DNA of 39,287 nucleotides from Terriglobia bacterium (GTDB taxonomy: Bacteria > Acidobacteriota > Terriglobia > Bryobacterales > Bryobacteraceae). The DNA lies in contig JANYJA010000054.1 in NCBI GenBank assembly GCA_025358575.1, positions 1-39,287 of the forward strand, given 5' to 3'. Of this stretch, positions 1 through 6,417 are shown piece by piece (the first letter of the stretch is position 1; each line of letters opens with the position of its first letter). Both the position numbers and the translations under genes were made by a program. The notes below the pieces were generated by a model. That model saw only the letters and a program-made list of their open reading frames with translations. It did no database searches and was not told where the DNA came from.

Positions 1-55
1 CGTACTGCTTCAAAGCCGTGATGATCTGCTCTTCGGTGTGTCGCTTCTTCGGCAT
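1..55 (-). CDS. IS3-family transposase OrfA, N-terminal part only
   Basis: The minus strand reads ATG at 55-53 and then MPKKRHTEEQIITALKQY before leaving the window. This is the usual opening of IS3-family OrfA, the helix-turn-helix subunit that is normally joined to the OrfB DDE integrase by programmed frameshifting. A strong ribosome binding site (GAGGAGG) sits a few bases upstream of the ATG. Only 18 codons are visible, so nothing can be said about OrfB or whether the element is intact. The call rests on recognising the N-terminal motif. Confidence 0.8.
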   Translation of the reverse strand, partial: MPKKRHTEEQIITALKQY

Positions 56-141
56 GTTGACCTCCTCGTTTCGTTTAGGAGGGCCTCAACCGACTACGAT
101 AACTCCAGTTTTAGTTGTTGCAGTTTTCGGGGTTTGGGTCA
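1..141 (-). mobile_element. Left end of an IS3-family insertion sequence, continuing outside the window
   Basis: OrfA starts at 55 on the minus strand. Behind it, the minus strand begins with TGACCCAAACCCC at 141, which resembles the TGA-type, C-rich ends of IS3/IS407-group elements. The boundary at 141 is inferred from that motif only. The other terminus and the target duplication are outside the window and cannot be compared. Confidence 0.5.
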
Positions 142-265: not shown

Positions 266-680
266 TTGTTCGATGCTGACCTCACGCGGGCATGCCTCAA
301 CGATGCATCCCTAGTCGATGCGACGCTCCGCCGCGCGAAGCTCGTCGGTTGCGAACTCAGAGGGGCAACGCTCAGAAATGCAAATTTGGACGAGGCCGAT
401 TTGAGTCATGCGAATCTGAGCAATGTCGATCTGCATAGTGGCAGCTTTTGGCACGCCAACCTGACGGGAGCGCAGATTGGTCTCACTCTGTTTGGAAGTG
501 CGCAGTTGGCCGATGCCGTCGGACTTGAAACGCTCGTGCAGACGGGACCATCGACGCTTGGCGTCGGAACTATCTACCGCGACAATCTTCCAGCCGCTTT
601 CCTTCAAGGGTGCGGCGTGCCCGAAGCATAATCTCATACCTGCCGTCGTTGCGGGCCGTGGGCTGGAATTTTATTCATGC
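266..680 (+). pseudogene. Pentapeptide-repeat protein remnant, frameshifted, possibly once TIR-linked
   Basis: The first open stretch (266-631) encodes about 120 residues of tandem A(D/N)LxX pentapeptide repeats, such as LRNANLDEADLSHANLSNVDL, which fold as a right-handed beta helix. The only start available is TTG at 266 and an in-frame stop lies at 251-253, so the 5' end looks lost. The tail (TGPSTLGVGTIYR...FLQGCGVPE) is the conserved run that follows the repeats in a family I recall as pentapeptide plus TIR-type proteins. The expected continuation appears in shifted frames: ISYLPSL near 630-650 and LEFYSC ending at 680. Two single-base losses, near 627 and 655-665, would explain this. No TIR sequence follows 680, so the effector part is gone. 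The repeat identity is clear; the TIR link is recalled, not tested. Confidence 0.65.
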
Positions 681-1719: not shown

Positions 1720-3399
1720 TTAGCTCGCGGATTCTTCGATCGTCAAAATTTGCCGGATCGCCGGATTGGCAATGGTCTGTTTGATTCCGCTGGGCCAGCG
1801 AATGAGGATTTCCTTCACGTGGTCTTCCGTGCCAATGCCGAAGAACAGGCGGCGGTCCTGAGAAGAAAGATAGCTGGCGGCGGCCGTGACCATCTTGTGC
1901 TGCGATTTGCCGGCAGCGGAAATGAGGGTGACCCGCGCGCCGATGCCATCGCGATTGCTTTTCTTCCCGCGGAGATTCAGGCCGATCCATGAGTTTCGAT
2001 TGCCGCCATCATTTCGCAAGATGTAAGCCGCGCCGCCGCTGTTGTTGACCACGATATCGAGATCGCCGTCGTTGTCGAGATCCGCGACCGCGGCACCCCG
2101 GCTGGCCCAATTGCGCTGGAACGCGGAGCCGCTGCGCGGCGAAACATCGTAGAATTTGCCGGACTCTTGTTTTAGTAATAGCGGCGGCTGCGCGTATTGA
2201 AGATGGGGCTGCGTGGCGTGGATGTTGTCCATGACGTGACCGTTGGCGAAAAACAGATCGTTCTCGCCGTCGTTGTCGTAGTCGAAGATGCGCACGCCCC
2301 ATCCGGCCAGCGAGCGCGTAATTTCGCCGAGGCGGGAACCGTTGGTCGCATAATCGAAAGTGCCGTCGCGATTGTTGCGGAAATACGCGTAGGATTCGTT
2401 CGAAAGCGCAGTGGTCACGATATCGGGGTAGCCATCGCCATCAATGTCGGCGGCGTCGGTACCCATACCCGCGAATACTTTCCCATCATCGGTGTATCCG
2501 GTGCCGGCGATGACGGCGGTTTCAGTGAAGGTGCCATTGCCGTTGTTCATGAAGAGGAACTGCTGGAACGAATCGTTGGCGACCGTGATATCCATCCAGC
2601 CATCCTGGTTGAAATCGGCGAAGGCGAGGCCGAGAGCTTTGCCGGCGCTGGCCTTGATGTGGCTGGATTCGCTGACGTCGGTGAAGGTGCCGTCGCCATT
2701 GTTGCGGAAGAGGTAATTGGAAATGGGCTTGTAGTTATCGGGGTGGCAGTAGGAGCGACCGCCGGCCTCGCGCAATCCGCAGAAGGTATTGGCCGCGAAA
2801 TTCCATTGGACGTAGCGGCAGATGAATAGATCGAGTTTGCCGTCATTGTTGTAGTCGAAGAATCCGGCACTGGTTTGCCAGCCTTCGGTGTGGAGGCCGG
2901 CTTTTTTGGTGACGTCGGTAAAGGTGCCGTCGCCGTTGTTGCGGTACAGAATGCAGCCGCCGTAGTTAGTGACGAGAAGATCGGGAAAGCCGTCATTGTC
3001 GTAGTCGGCGACGGCGGCGCCCATGCCGTATCCTTGGCCCTGCAAACCGGCCTTCACGGTGAAGTCGGTGAAAGTGCCGTCATGATTGTTGCGATAGAGG
3101 CGATTCCAGAATTCCGGACCGGTTTTCACGAGTGGCGCGTCGTCGCGCTGGGGGGTGTTCAATTGCGCTCCGTTGACGAAGAATAGGTCGGGCCAGCCGT
3201 CGTTATCGAAATCGATGATGGCGACGCCGCCGGTCATGGCTTCGAGCAGATACTTTTGGGAGGTGGGGGAATTGTGGTTGACGAAGTTTACGTGAGAGGA
3301 GAGGGTGATATCGGTGTAGTGGACGGGGGCGGGAGACGGGGCCGCGAGGGTGGTGAGGATGAAGATGGCGAGGATTGGCCGGGTGTAGGGGAACTGCAC
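1720..3399 (-). CDS. Secreted VCBS/FG-GAP repeat protein with C-terminal ASPIC/UnbV domain
   Basis: The 559-residue product starts with a signal peptide (about residues 1-24). At least seven Asp-rich loops follow, such as DFDNDGWPD, DYDNDGFPD and DLDNDGDLD, alternating with RNN-DGTFTD motifs. These are the calcium-binding blades of an integrin-alpha-like beta propeller. The last 80 or so residues (SWIGLNLRG, GIGARVTL, IRWPSG) form the ASPIC/UnbV (CRTAC1-like) domain. Such proteins are exported and common in Acidobacteriota and Planctomycetota; their molecular role is poorly known. The start is GTG at 3399, without an obvious ribosome binding site. A GDSL pseudogene follows after 4 bases. An IS256 element inserted 51 bp upstream has probably replaced the native promoter region. 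Confidence 0.9.
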   Translation of the reverse strand: MQFPYTRPILAIFILTTLAAPSPAPVHYTDITLSSHVNFVNHNSPTSQKYLLEAMTGGVAIIDFDNDGWPDLFFVNGAQLNTPQRDDAPLVKTGPEFWNRLYRNNHDGTFTDFTVKAGLQGQGYGMGAAVADYDNDGFPDLLVTNYGGCILYRNNGDGTFTDVTKKAGLHTEGWQTSAGFFDYNNDGKLDLFICRYVQWNFAANTFCGLREAGGRSYCHPDNYKPISNYLFRNNGDGTFTDVSESSHIKASAGKALGLAFADFNQDGWMDITVANDSFQQFLFMNNGNGTFTETAVIAGTGYTDDGKVFAGMGTDAADIDGDGYPDIVTTALSNESYAYFRNNRDGTFDYATNGSRLGEITRSLAGWGVRIFDYDNDGENDLFFANGHVMDNIHATQPHLQYAQPPLLLKQESGKFYDVSPRSGSAFQRNWASRGAAVADLDNDGDLDIVVNNSGGAAYILRNDGGNRNSWIGLNLRGKKSNRDGIGARVTLISAAGKSQHKMVTAAASYLSSQDRRLFFGIGTEDHVKEILIRWPSGIKQTIANPAIRQILTIEESAS

Positions 3400-3432
3400 G
3401 TCTTCAGTTTATGGCGGGTCTGCGTTGTGGGG

Positions 3433-3461
3433 AGTAGAATGTTGCATTGCGGTAGTGTCAA
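3433..3461 (-). promoter_or_regulatory. Candidate hybrid promoter formed by the IS256 end and flanking DNA
   Basis: On the minus strand, a perfect -35 box TTGACA (3461-3456) lies inside the IS terminus and points outward. Exactly 17 bp further is TCTACT (3438-3433) in the flanking DNA, a 4-of-6 match to TATAAT. The expected transcript would start near 3426, some 27 bp before the GTG of the VCBS gene. Outward -35 boxes in IS256 ends that form hybrid promoters are established for IS256. That this one is active is an inference. Confidence 0.5.
3443..3450. repeat. Target site duplication, left copy (TGCATTGC)
   Basis: The 8-bp sequence TGCATTGC directly abuts the outer end of the left IS terminus and recurs exactly at 4797-4804. 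A duplication of 8-9 bp is the signature of IS256-family insertion. Confidence 0.88.
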
Positions 3462-3482
3462 GAACTTTGTGTAAACGCGGTT
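3451..3482 (+). repeat. IS256 terminal inverted repeat, left
   Basis: The outer half contains GTGTCAAG, which supplies an outward TTGACA on the minus strand. The inner half, TTGTGTAAACGCGGTT at 3467-3482, is the exact reverse complement of 4765-4780. Confidence 0.88.
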
Positions 3483-3497
3483 CGTGCAGTTGCATTT

Positions 3498-3515
3498 GAC
3501 CTTCTTAGGAAGGTC
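3498..3515. terminator. Hairpin just behind the transposase stop inside the IS
   Basis: GACCTTC (3498-3504) and GAAGGTC (3509-3515) form a perfect 7-bp stem with a TTAG loop, six bases beyond the transposase stop. There is no T-run, so it is at best a weak terminator or pause. IS elements often carry such hairpins near their ends to limit readthrough. Confidence 0.4.
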
Positions 3516-3521
3516 TTGACT

Positions 3522-4734
3522 TTATGCCCCACGCGCCTGCTCAATGCGTTCGGGCCAGCGGATCGAAAACTGCCGTAGTGCCTCGCGCCAGTTCTGTACC
3601 GTGTGCCATTTCTTCGACACGTTTAGAAGCGCCAGATAGAGCAGTTTAATCGCCGCCTCCTGACTCGAAAATGACCCCCGGTTCTTCGTCACTTTACGCA
3701 AGGTCATGTGCAGCGATTCCACCGCGTTGGTCGTGTACACGATCCGGCGGATCTCTTCTGGAAACTCGAAAAACGGGATGACCCGCTGCCAACTGCGCGC
3801 CCACACGTCGGCGACCACCTGATGCTTCGGGTACTTGGCGCGGAATGCATGGAGTGCCAGTTCAGCCGTCTCGGCCGTGGCCGCGCGGTAGATCGGCTTC
3901 AGGTCCGCCGCGATGGCTTTGCGCTCCTTCCAATTCACGTAGTTCAGACTGGCGCGGATCAGATGCACGATGCACGTCTCCACCAGAGTTTCCGGGAACA
4001 CCGCTTCGATCGCTTCCGGAAAGCCTTTCAAACCATCGGTGCAGATCACAAACGCATCTTTCATCCCGCGGTTCTTCAGGTTCGTCAGTACGGCCATCCA
4101 GTACTTCGCCCCTTCATTACCGCTGACCCACAAGCCCAGCACGGCCTTCTCGCCCTCCATGTTGATACCAATTGCGGTGTAGACGGCACGGTTATCCACC
4201 TTGCCGTCCTGCCGCATCTTCACCATTAGCGCGTCCAGATAGACGATTGGATAAAGCGCTTCCAGCGGCCGGTCCTGCCAGGCTTTCACCTCATCCTGAA
4301 TGCTGTCGGTCACCTCCGAGATCAGCCCCGGGCTCACGTCAACACAATACATCTCGCGCAGATGGCTTTGAATGTCGCGCACCGTCATGCCCAGCGCATA
4401 CATCGAAAGGATCTTCGCGTCGAACCCTTCAAAGCGCGTCTGGTGCTTCTCTATCAACTGCGGCTCGAAGGTGCCGTTGCGATCGCGTGGGCACGTTGAC
4501 GGTCATCTCGCCGGCCTCTCCTTTCAACGTCTTAAGGCTTTTGCCATTGCGCGAGTTGCCGCTGCCGTACCCCTCCACATCATGCTTCTGATAGCCCAAA
4601 TGATGGTTCATCTCGCCGGCGAGCATGCGCTCCACCAGCGCTTTCGTCAGTTCCTTCACCAGCCCGTCGGGCCCGATCAGGCTCTTGCCGCTGCTCGCGA
4701 TCAGCTCGTCAATTAACTCGTTTGGGATTGCCAT
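3522..4734 (-). pseudogene. IS256-family (Mutator-type) transposase, single-base frameshift
   Basis: The N-terminal part starts at ATG 4734 (MAIPNELIDELIASSGKSLI) and runs to the conserved GEAGEMTVNVP. The rest continues in another frame from EKHQTRFEGFDAKILSMYAL to the stop at 3522. One extra base in the GGG run at 4489-4491 restores the expected VNVPRDRNGTFEPQL. The catalytic DDE residues are all present after the shift: Asp in VYLDALMVKM, Asp in ICTDGLKGF and Glu in NAVESLH. IS256 transposases come from one frame, so this is a disabling mutation or a sequencing error, not programmed frameshifting. The full-length protein would be about 400 residues, normal for the family. Confidence 0.9.
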
Positions 4735-4764
4735 GCGTTTCTCCTATCGTCGTCTCTCTTGGAA

Positions 4765-4796
4765 AACCGCGTTTACACAATTCTTTCTACACCCTC
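4765..4796 (-). repeat. IS256 terminal inverted repeat, right
   Basis: Read inward on the minus strand it begins GAGGGTGTAG and ends with the 16-bp core shared with the left end. Unlike the left end it has no clear outward TTGACA. Confidence 0.88.
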
Positions 4797-4804
4797 TGCA
4801 TTGC
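4797..4804. repeat. Target site duplication, right copy (TGCATTGC)
   Basis: Exact copy of 3443-3450, directly abutting the right IS terminus. Removing the IS plus one copy rejoins the VCBS upstream region to the tRNA-Lys 3' flank. Confidence 0.88.
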
Positions 4805-4826
4805 CGCGCCGAAACCTTTAATTTGC

Positions 4827-4902
4827 TGGTGAGCGCGGTGGGAATCGAACCTACAACCTAGTGATTAAGAGTCACTTGCTCTGCCAATTGAGCTACGCGC
4901 CC
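4827..4902 (-). tRNA. tRNA-Lys (anticodon CTT)
   Basis: The 76 bases fold as a complete cloverleaf. The acceptor stem GGGCGCG pairs with CGCGCTC with one G-U; the D stem is GCTC/GAGC; the anticodon stem is AGTGA/TCACT around loop CTCTTAA, giving anticodon CTT, which reads AAG (Lys). The variable loop is AGGTT and the T loop is TTCGATT. The T stem GTAGG/CCCAC has one A-C mismatch at its third pair. Discriminator A and a genome-encoded CCA (4829-4827) complete the 3' end. It is the only tRNA in the window. Confidence 0.95.
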
Positions 4903-5001
4903 CCGAGGTGAAACGGGTGTCGCTTGGCCTTCCCGCGACCTCCACATCATACCAGAAGTCGCGACCGATGCAGTACATTGGGAAATGCCCTCAGGGGCGG
5001 C

Positions 5002-6417
5002 ATGTTCAGTCGACAACATCGGAAAGCCAAGATCCTGTTCGGGCTCGCGGACGTCATTCTCACCGCCCTCGCCTTTGAAGCCGCTTACCTCACGCGTCTC
5101 TCGTTCAACCTCTCCCACAATTTCTATTACCAGGTCCCATTCAAAGCCCTGGTACTCGGGTTCTGCATCCTTACGTGGGTGCTAGTCGGCGCCTGGCTCG
5201 ATGTGTATGGCCGCCTCGGCATCGGCGAACCGCACGTCATTATCCGCGATTCCTTTCGACAGGCCGCGTATGGCGCCGTCTGCCTGGTGGTGCTCGAATA
5301 CATCCTGAGACTGGATCTCAGCCGTTTTTTCCTGCTGCTGTTCGCGGTCTATAGCTGGATCTTCCTGCTGGTATTCCGGCTTCTCGCGCGGCGCCTGGTG
5401 GGAATCGTGCGCCGCGAATTCGGCGCGCTTCGCTACGTTATGGTGGTTGGCACGGGACCGCGCGCGCGCAAGCTGGCCGAAGCGCTGGAACGGTCCGCCG
5501 ACCAGGGTGTGCGCCTCCGCGGCTTTCTCATTCCCACAGGCGAGGCGGGGCTTGAAGAGATTCAACTCGGTGCAGCTTATCCAGTCTATCCGGCGTCCAG
5601 GCTGCCGGATCTGCTTAGTCAGCACGTGATTGACGAGATTCTCTTTGCGGTTGAAAGCGAGAAACTCGCATCGCTAGAAGACGTCTTCCTGCTCTGCGAT
5701 GAAGAGGGGGTGCGCACACGCGTTGCGGTCGATTTCTTCCCGCACGTTAACAGTGAAATCTATCTGGAAAAGCTGGGCGCGACGCCGCTGCTGACTTTTT
5801 CCGCAGCGCCGGACGACGAAATTAGGCTTCTGGCTAAACGCATGATCGACATCTTGGTCGGGTCACTCGCGCTTATAGCTGCATTGCCGTTCATGGCGAT
5901 GATTGCACTGCTGATTCGCCTGACATCCCCGGGCCCGATCATTTTTCGACAGGAACGCTGCGGGTTGAACGGACGGCGCTTTCGCTTCTACAAATTTCGC
6001 TCCATGTGTTTTGACGCCGAGGCTCGTAAGGCCGAGGTGATGCACTTGAGCCATCGCGGAACGGCCACCAAAATTGCCAACGATCCCAGGCTGACGCCAG
6101 TCGGACGCTTTCTGCGGAAATTCTCCATCGATGAATGGCCGCAGTTCTTCAATGTAGTGAAAGGCGACATGTCTCTGGTGGGGCCGCGTCCGGCGATTCC
6201 GAGCGAAGTTGAACAATATCAGCGCTGGCAGCGGCGGCGGCTGCGGATGCGTCCGGGATTAACCTGTTTATGGGCGCTCAACGGGCGCGATGCCGTGGAT
6301 TTCGAAACGTGGATGAAAATGGATATGCAGTATATAGACAACTGGTCGCTCGGGCTGGATTGGAAGATTCTGATCCGGACCATTCCCCAGGTTTTGATCG
6401 GCAAAGGCGCAAACTGA
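5002..6417 (+). CDS. Polyprenyl-phosphate sugar-1-phosphate transferase (exopolysaccharide initiation)
   Basis: This membrane enzyme transfers a sugar-1-phosphate from a UDP-sugar to undecaprenyl phosphate, the first step of exopolysaccharide or lipid-linked glycan assembly. The 471-residue protein has about four N-terminal membrane segments (residues 10-130), a Rossmann-like CoA-binding_3 domain (about 140-260) with VVGTGPRARKLAEAL, one more membrane segment (about 283-308), and the C-terminal bacterial sugar transferase domain with KFRSM, DEWPQFFNV and LVGPRP. This is the WbaP/WcaJ-type layout. I chose ATG 5002 because it has an AGGGG-type ribosome binding site and the conserved basic N-terminus (MFSRQHRKAKILFG). 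The frame is open further upstream. The sugar is unknown. The next gene's ATG follows directly. Confidence 0.9.
   Translation: MFSRQHRKAKILFGLADVILTALAFEAAYLTRLSFNLSHNFYYQVPFKALVLGFCILTWVLVGAWLDVYGRLGIGEPHVIIRDSFRQAAYGAVCLVVLEYILRLDLSRFFLLLFAVYSWIFLLVFRLLARRLVGIVRREFGALRYVMVVGTGPRARKLAEALERSADQGVRLRGFLIPTGEAGLEEIQLGAAYPVYPASRLPDLLSQHVIDEILFAVESEKLASLEDVFLLCDEEGVRTRVAVDFFPHVNSEIYLEKLGATPLLTFSAAPDDEIRLLAKRMIDILVGSLALIAALPFMAMIALLIRLTSPGPIIFRQERCGLNGRRFRFYKFRSMCFDAEARKAEVMHLSHRGTATKIANDPRLTPVGRFLRKFSIDEWPQFFNVVKGDMSLVGPRPAIPSEVEQYQRWQRRRLRMRPGLTCLWALNGRDAVDFETWMKMDMQYIDNWSLGLDWKILIRTIPQVLIGKGAN

What the first reader, a model, noticed from the sequence alone, without database searches (positions are those of the whole stretch)
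3433..3461. IS256 insertion appears to have built a hybrid promoter for the VCBS-repeat gene
The inserted element supplies a perfect outward TTGACA (3461-3456, minus strand). The flanking host DNA supplies TCTACT exactly 17 bp away, with the GTG of the VCBS gene 34 bp further. The exact 8-bp duplication shows where host DNA ends. IS256 is known to make such hybrid promoters. Here it would control a secreted repeat protein whose native upstream region was displaced.
Basis: partly seen in the sequence, partly recalled or inferred. Interest (0 to 1): 0.6.

Follow-up and report, generated by a model that had tools for sequence, protein, structure and literature searches.

The report
Insertion sequence beside an intact promoter
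A jumping gene landed in front of a secreted-type repeat protein gene of a soil bacterium and carries half a promoter at its edge, but the gene most likely still uses its own native promoter, so the apparent hybrid switch is probably a coincidence.

Summary
The letters are as described: an IS256-family element (3451-4796, exact 8-bp duplications) ends in an outward TTGACA (3461-3456), host TCTACT (3438-3433) follows after 17 bp, and the GTG is at 3399. The hybrid-promoter reading is weak.

(1) TTGACA is bp 6-11 of the element's 3' end, with TAGAAA at bp 8-13 of its 5' end: the places published for the circle-junction promoter halves of ISCth4. It belongs to the element, not to this site.

(2) TCTACT has C at -11. 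A 4/6 match at 17 bp arises at 1.9% of window positions. At 68 held-out insertion sites it occurred in 1 of 68 (1.27 expected).

(3) In 840 kb of this genome TAnnnT boxes are enriched fourfold (66 versus 16) 5-9 nt before start codons; TCnnnT boxes are not (4 versus 5). This is the leaderless signature already reported for Acidobacteria.

(4) The gene has such a box, TAAACT (3411-3406), 6 nt before its GTG, wholly in host DNA.

Most likely the native leaderless promoter survived and the hybrid is incidental. RNA 5' ends could not be examined, and no relative with an empty site was found.

The parts
3451..4796 (-). IS256-family insertion sequence, 1346 bp, the only full-length copy in the assembly
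   Evidence: ends and duplications; transposase family; own-genome search (one other match, 95 bp at 72%)
3443..3450 (.). target-site duplication, left copy, TGCATTGC
4797..4804 (.). target-site duplication, right copy, TGCATTGC
3451..3480 (-). terminal inverted repeat downstream of the transposase (3' end)
4767..4796 (-). terminal inverted repeat upstream of the transposase (5' end)
3456..3461 (-). outward TTGACA, bp 6-11 of the 3' end: -35 half of the putative circle-junction promoter
   Evidence: placement as in ISCth4 (PMC7780238)
4784..4789 (-). TAGAAA, bp 8-13 of the 5' end: -10 half of the putative circle-junction promoter
3433..3438 (-). host TCTACT, the proposed hybrid -10; 4/6 with C at -11
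3406..3411 (-). host TAAACT, candidate native leaderless -10, 6 nt before the GTG
1720..3399 (-). FG-GAP (VCBS-type) repeat protein with UnbV_ASPIC domain, CRTAC1-like, GTG start
4429..4734 (-). transposase, N-terminal fragment
3522..4457 (-). transposase, main fragment in another frame
4827..4902 (-). tRNA-Lys (CTT) on the other side of the element, same strand
4946..4951 (-). TATGAT with TG one base before it, candidate promoter of tRNA-Lys

Best explanation
An IS256-family element inserted between a tRNA-Lys gene and a CRTAC1-like FG-GAP gene. Its outward TTGACA is the element's own -35 half, which would pair with the -10-like TAGAAA of its other end when the element forms a circle and so drive the transposase. 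Its pairing with host TCTACT is incidental. The gene keeps its native leaderless promoter (-10 TAAACT at 3411-3406, RNA start at or next to the GTG at 3399), which lies wholly in the 51 bp of host DNA between element and gene. Shown: the anatomy, the place of the half promoters, the lack of -10 enrichment at insertion sites, and enrichment of TAnnnT but not TCnnnT boxes before starts in this genome. Inferred: where RNA polymerase starts, and that the junction promoter works.
For: TTGACA at bp 6-11 and TAGAAA at bp 8-13 match the ISCth4 halves (PMC7780238, passages). Of 20 entries taken by transposase similarity, 12 showed a 3' end, 7 of 12 with TTGACA, and 12 showed a 5' end, 0 of 12 with it. 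Held-out sites: 1 of 68 with at least 4/6 at 17 bp (1.27 expected), 2 of 68 at 16-18 bp (3.74 expected). Own genome, 570 first starts: TAnnnT 66 versus 16.1, TCnnnT 4 versus 5.25 at 5-9 nt. TAAACT stands 6 nt before the GTG, which is the first in-frame start after a stop, the next ATG/GTG/TTG being codon 55. 8 of 65 boxed starts have a Shine-Dalgarno-like word, against 124 of all 570. Homologues L007, L008 and L010 have TATAGT, TATAAT and TATAAT 6 nt before one of their in-frame starts, and 6 of 33 homologues have a box at 5-9 nt against 2.0 expected. Acidobacteria are reported to have leaderless genes with TANNNT about 12 bp before the start (PMC3160421, passages).
Against: TAAACT is itself only a 4/6 match and has no -35; TAAACT alone is barely above background before starts (3 versus 1.4). 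About a quarter of boxes at that distance are background (16 of 66). Boxes of at least 4/6 lacking A at -11 or T at -7 also rise at 5-9 nt (65 versus 39.4), so the host is not strictly bound to TAnnnT, although those with T at -7 but no A at -11 hardly rise (26 versus 21.9). The closest homologue, L006, has no such box. No RNA data. 3' ends without TTGACA exist among relatives (5 of 12).
Confidence: 0.62

Rival explanations
1. Hybrid promoter: the element's TTGACA and host TCTACT together start transcription near 3426 and drive the gene, alone or beside the native promoter.
For: Consensus -35, 17-bp spacing and T at -12 and -7; best-scoring pair in the window. Precedents in PMC9330008 and PMC3281130 (passages).
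Against: C at -11; in E. coli RNA polymerase -11T lowered binding of longer probes about 200- to nearly 1000-fold (PMC3753650, passages; C was not in the passages seen). TCnnnT not enriched before starts in this genome. Chance rate 1.9% at 17 bp, and no enrichment at 68 held-out sites.
Confidence: 0.18
2. Read-through: transcription from the tRNA-Lys promoter, or from the transposase region, runs through the element into the gene.
For: tRNA-Lys, transposase and gene lie on one strand; TATGAT with TG before it stands upstream of the tRNA; no terminator-like site on that strand in 3380-5050. Before the insertion the tRNA end was 73 nt from the GTG.
Against: 1.3 kb of a frameshifted, largely untranslated reading frame would lie between, which often favours termination (general knowledge). 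tRNA-Lys next to a CRTAC1-like gene was not seen in 20 tRNA-Lys regions of relatives, three of them with almost no DNA beyond the tRNA.
Confidence: 0.15
3. Elements of this group prefer insertion sites that supply a -10 box, so that hybrid promoters are a regular product.
For: Of the first seven sites looked at, 4 of 7 had at least 4/6 at 17 bp and 5 of 7 at 16-18 bp. A mixed set of 24 sites, which contains those seven, gave 7 of 24 at 17 bp against 1.33 expected.
Against: 68 further sites: 1 of 68 at 17 bp (1.27 expected), 2 of 68 at 16-18 bp (3.74 expected). With 11 sites first left out added: 1 of 79 (1.66) and 3 of 79 (4.92). Without the five sites that raised the idea the mixed set gave 3 of 19 against 1.22.
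Confidence: 0.03

Closest known systems
IS256-family insertion sequences (ISCth4, IS256, ISPaes3)
   Same: Mutator-type transposase, 8-bp duplication, ends with TGTGTAAA, -35 half at bp 6-11 of one end and -10-like half at bp 8-13 of the other
   Different: transposase split by a frameshift; one full-length copy in the assembly; activity not shown
IS256 hybrid promoters (llm in S. aureus, mecA homologue in S. sciuri, tetA trap with ISPaes3), known here through PMC9330008 and PMC3281130
   Same: outward -35 half at the element's end and a gene just outside it
   Different: host -10 candidate has C at -11; no expression data; a native promoter candidate lies between element and gene
Leaderless genes with a TANNNT box about 12 bp before the start (PMC3160421)
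   Same: first T of TAAACT is 12 nt before the GTG, no Shine-Dalgarno-like word directly before the start, phylum with reported leaderless genes
   Different: 4/6 match only; RNA start not mapped

Membership tests
IS256 family insertion sequence | IS256/Mutator-type transposase | tested here: met
   Pfam PF00872 in both fragments; NCBIfam NF033543 at 350 bits in the main fragment (cut-off 150); the N-terminal fragment scores 18 bits, below the cut-off
IS256 family insertion sequence | 8- or 9-bp target duplication and terminal inverted repeats with TGTGTAAA | tested here: met
IS256 family insertion sequence | promoter halves split between the two ends | tested here: met
   bp 6-11 and bp 8-13 as in ISCth4; function not tested
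IS256 family insertion sequence | one intact transposase reading frame | tested here: not met
   two fragments in different frames; a decayed member or an assembly error, which does not change the family
IS256-type hybrid promoter | outward -35 half in the element's end | tested here: met
   TTGACA 3461-3456
IS256-type hybrid promoter | functional -10 in host DNA at the right spacing | tested here: inconclusive
   17 bp but C at -11; class not enriched before starts in this genome
IS256-type hybrid promoter | RNA start or changed expression that depends on the insertion | not testable with these tools
   no RNA data, no empty-site relative
Leaderless promoter | TAnnnT box about 12 nt before the start codon | tested here: met
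   TAAACT, first T 12 nt before the GTG
Leaderless promoter | signal enriched in the same genome | tested here: met
   66 versus 16.1 at 5-9 nt before 570 first starts
Leaderless promoter | RNA 5' end at the start codon | not testable with these tools
   no RNA data

The most novel reading that the evidence does not exclude
The insertion gives the gene a second promoter: the element's consensus -35 rescues a poor host -10, so that the gene is made both as a leaderless message from TAAACT and as a message with a leader of roughly 27 nt from the hybrid. A mobile element would then have changed the kind of message, not only its amount.
Probability: 0.13. Interest if true: 0.4.

Novelty: new member of a known kind. 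Interest (0 to 1): 0.15.

Why it matters
It shows how a convincing hybrid promoter can arise from a fixed half promoter in an element's end plus chance host DNA, and it gives a base rate (about 2% at 17 bp) and a held-out set of insertion sites against which such claims can be judged. It also suggests that in bacteria rich in leaderless genes, where the -10 lies about 12 nt from the start codon, an insertion a few dozen bases upstream can leave the core promoter whole.

Tried and rejected
Empty site: I found no relative with the uninterrupted junction. 20 tRNA-Lys regions of relatives held no CRTAC1-like hit; three of them (L094, L107, L111) have almost no DNA beyond the tRNA, and ARAGORN found no tRNA in two (L109, L110). 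29 loci of CRTAC1 homologues in relatives (L006-L034, mostly 1.5 kb of flank each) held no tRNA-Lys. The exact junction pattern had 0 matches in viral contigs.

Other copies: none full-length in the own genome, one 95-bp match at 72%. In a draw of 297 genomes of the phylum 14 had any DNA match, the window's own included. The end pattern had 0 matches in 369 genomes of the class of the L085 genome.

Preference for sites with a -10 box: suggested by the first seven sites, not borne out by 68 held-out ones. Of the 89 sites, 9 repeats and 5 sites with another end type (L259, L262, L275, L293, L305) were dropped before that count. Six sites (L112-L114, L116, L117, L119), with no or weak transposase similarity, were not given to it. 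Adding all 11 gives 1 of 79 at 17 bp (1.66 expected) and 3 of 79 at 16-18 bp (4.92 expected). L300 and L303 have nearly the same flank in opposite orientations and both count as misses. Of the viral-contig pattern matches (120 stretches, scan stopped at its limit, 80 loci held) only those with a transposase match upstream were used.

Promoter maps of Acidobacteria: one search, nothing usable in the 12 of 66 papers listed. Maki and Murakami 1997 and Prudhomme 2002 are not held and are known here only through citing papers.

Full report
Observation. The reported letters are present and correctly placed. The element spans 3451-4796 between exact TGCATTGC duplications (3443-3450 and 4797-4804) and belongs to the IS256 family by transposase, ends and duplication. 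It is the only full-length copy found in an assembly of 4.77 Mb in 261 contigs. Its transposase is split into fragments 4734-4429 and 4457-3522 in different frames; the closest copy found, L082 (83% protein identity), is also frameshifted, at another place. The gene downstream encodes FG-GAP (VCBS-type) repeats with an UnbV_ASPIC domain. That it is secreted rests on a signal-peptide-like start read by eye.

What TTGACA is. PMC7780238 (passages) describes copy-out/paste-in elements, IS256 family included, whose ends carry the -35 and -10 halves of a promoter that forms when the ends are joined in the circular intermediate. In ISCth4 these are bp 6-11 of the right end and bp 8-13 of the left end, to be joined by a 5- or 6-bp spacer. 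In the window element TTGACA is bp 6-11 of the end downstream of the transposase and TAGAAA bp 8-13 of the end upstream of it, and a 5-bp linker sets them 17 bp apart. All six elements with both ends read give a box of at least 4/6 at 16-18 bp with a linker of 5 or 6 bp; in four of six (window, L082, L083, L090) it is bp 8-13. That test is loose (several spacings and linkers) and has no control. Of 20 entries taken by transposase similarity, 12 showed a 3' end and 7 of these carry TTGACA; 12 showed a 5' end and 0 of 12 carry it. L067 and L078 among the seven are the same element in one genome, and a 3' end of L088, seen only, lacks TTGACA. So TTGACA is a feature of one end of many, not all, of these elements.

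Is the host match more than chance? Placing this end at every position of both strands of the window gives at least 4/6 at 17 bp in 1.9% of 78,494 positions and at 16-18 bp in 5.6%; with A at -11 and T at -7 the figures are 0.9% and 2.6%. The observed box belongs only to the looser class. Among the first seven copies looked at, 4 of 7 had such a box at 17 bp, which looked like a preference. The end pattern was then sought in the own order (31 of 257 genomes) and the phylum (8 of 396). The 68 further sites gave 1 of 68 at 17 bp against 1.27 expected from the same flanks, and 2 of 68 at 16-18 bp against 3.74. Adding the 11 sites first left out gave 1 of 79 and 3 of 79 (1.66 and 4.92 expected). 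I conclude that there is no preference large enough to matter here.

What the host uses. A at -11 is the key base for promoter melting: with E. coli RNA polymerase, -11T lowered binding of longer probes about 200- to nearly 1000-fold (PMC3753650, passages). To see whether this host differs, 60 stretches of the own genome and the window were profiled: 839,884 bases, 578 ORFs, 570 first starts. TAnnnT boxes of at least 4/6 number 66 at 5-9 nt before starts against 16.1 expected from 20-59 nt. TCnnnT (4 versus 5.25) and TGnnnT (4 versus 5.88) do not rise, and TTnnnT hardly does (9 versus 6.38). TCTACT itself occurs 0 times there (0.6 expected). Against a strict reading, boxes of at least 4/6 that lack A at -11 or T at -7 also rise, 65 versus 39.4, though those with T at -7 but no A at -11 hardly do, 26 versus 21.9. 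Start codons were taken as the first in each frame, so the counts are diluted by wrong starts. Boxed starts have a Shine-Dalgarno-like word in 8 of 65 cases, against 124 of all 570. PMC3160421 (passages) reports the same signature, TANNNT about 12 bp before the start, and predicts leaderless genes in three of three Acidobacteria (9.7-19.4% of genes). The phenomenon is therefore known in the phylum.

The gene's own promoter. TAAACT (3411-3406) lies 6 nt before the GTG, with A at -11 and T at -7, and its first T is 12 nt before the start. The in-frame stop TAA is part of this box, and the next ATG, GTG or TTG in frame is codon 55, so the GTG is the only start that keeps the signal-like stretch. 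L007, L008 and L010, three of the six closest homologues, have TATAGT, TATAAT and TATAAT 6 nt before one of their several in-frame starts. Of 33 homologues, 6 have a box at 5-9 nt against 2.0 expected. The closest, L006, has none. About three quarters of such boxes in this genome exceed background (50 of 66), which sets the weight given here. No -35 stands before TAAACT, but -35 matches are not above control for such boxes in this genome either (2.45 versus 2.36).

Before the insertion. The joined flanks put the end of tRNA-Lys 73 nt upstream of the GTG. The tRNA has a TATGAT with TG before it. Read-through into the gene is possible, then and now, since all genes point the same way and no terminator-like site was found on that strand in 3380-5050. 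I could not find the old arrangement in relatives.

Verdict. The parts are real, but the hybrid promoter is most likely a chance pairing of an element's half promoter with a poor host box. The native leaderless promoter, left intact, is the better candidate. RNA 5' ends, which would decide, were not available.

Noticed in passing
L322-L381 and window (own genome, 839,884 bases): TAnnnT boxes are enriched fourfold 5-9 nt before first start codons, with no rise of -35 matches: a leaderless-promoter signature in this genome.
   Followed up: partly
own genome G000: 32 matches to the CRTAC1-like protein were counted in this genome, and 60 of 61 genomes searched have at least one: a large paralogous family in this order.
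   Followed up: no
window 1-60: By eye, the minus strand at the contig's edge reads like the start of an IS3-type transposase; such an element may end the contig. Recalled resemblance, not tested.
   Followed up: no
window 266-631: A 121-aa frame with pentapeptide repeats (Pfam PF00805, 60 bits).
   Followed up: partly
L314 (G974 contig C316): Two element ends of this kind lie 34 bp apart in the same direction, as if one copy had inserted at the end of another.
   Followed up: no
window 4429-4502 and L082: The window element and its nearest relative are both frameshifted in the early part of the transposase, at different places: decay or assembly errors.
   Followed up: partly
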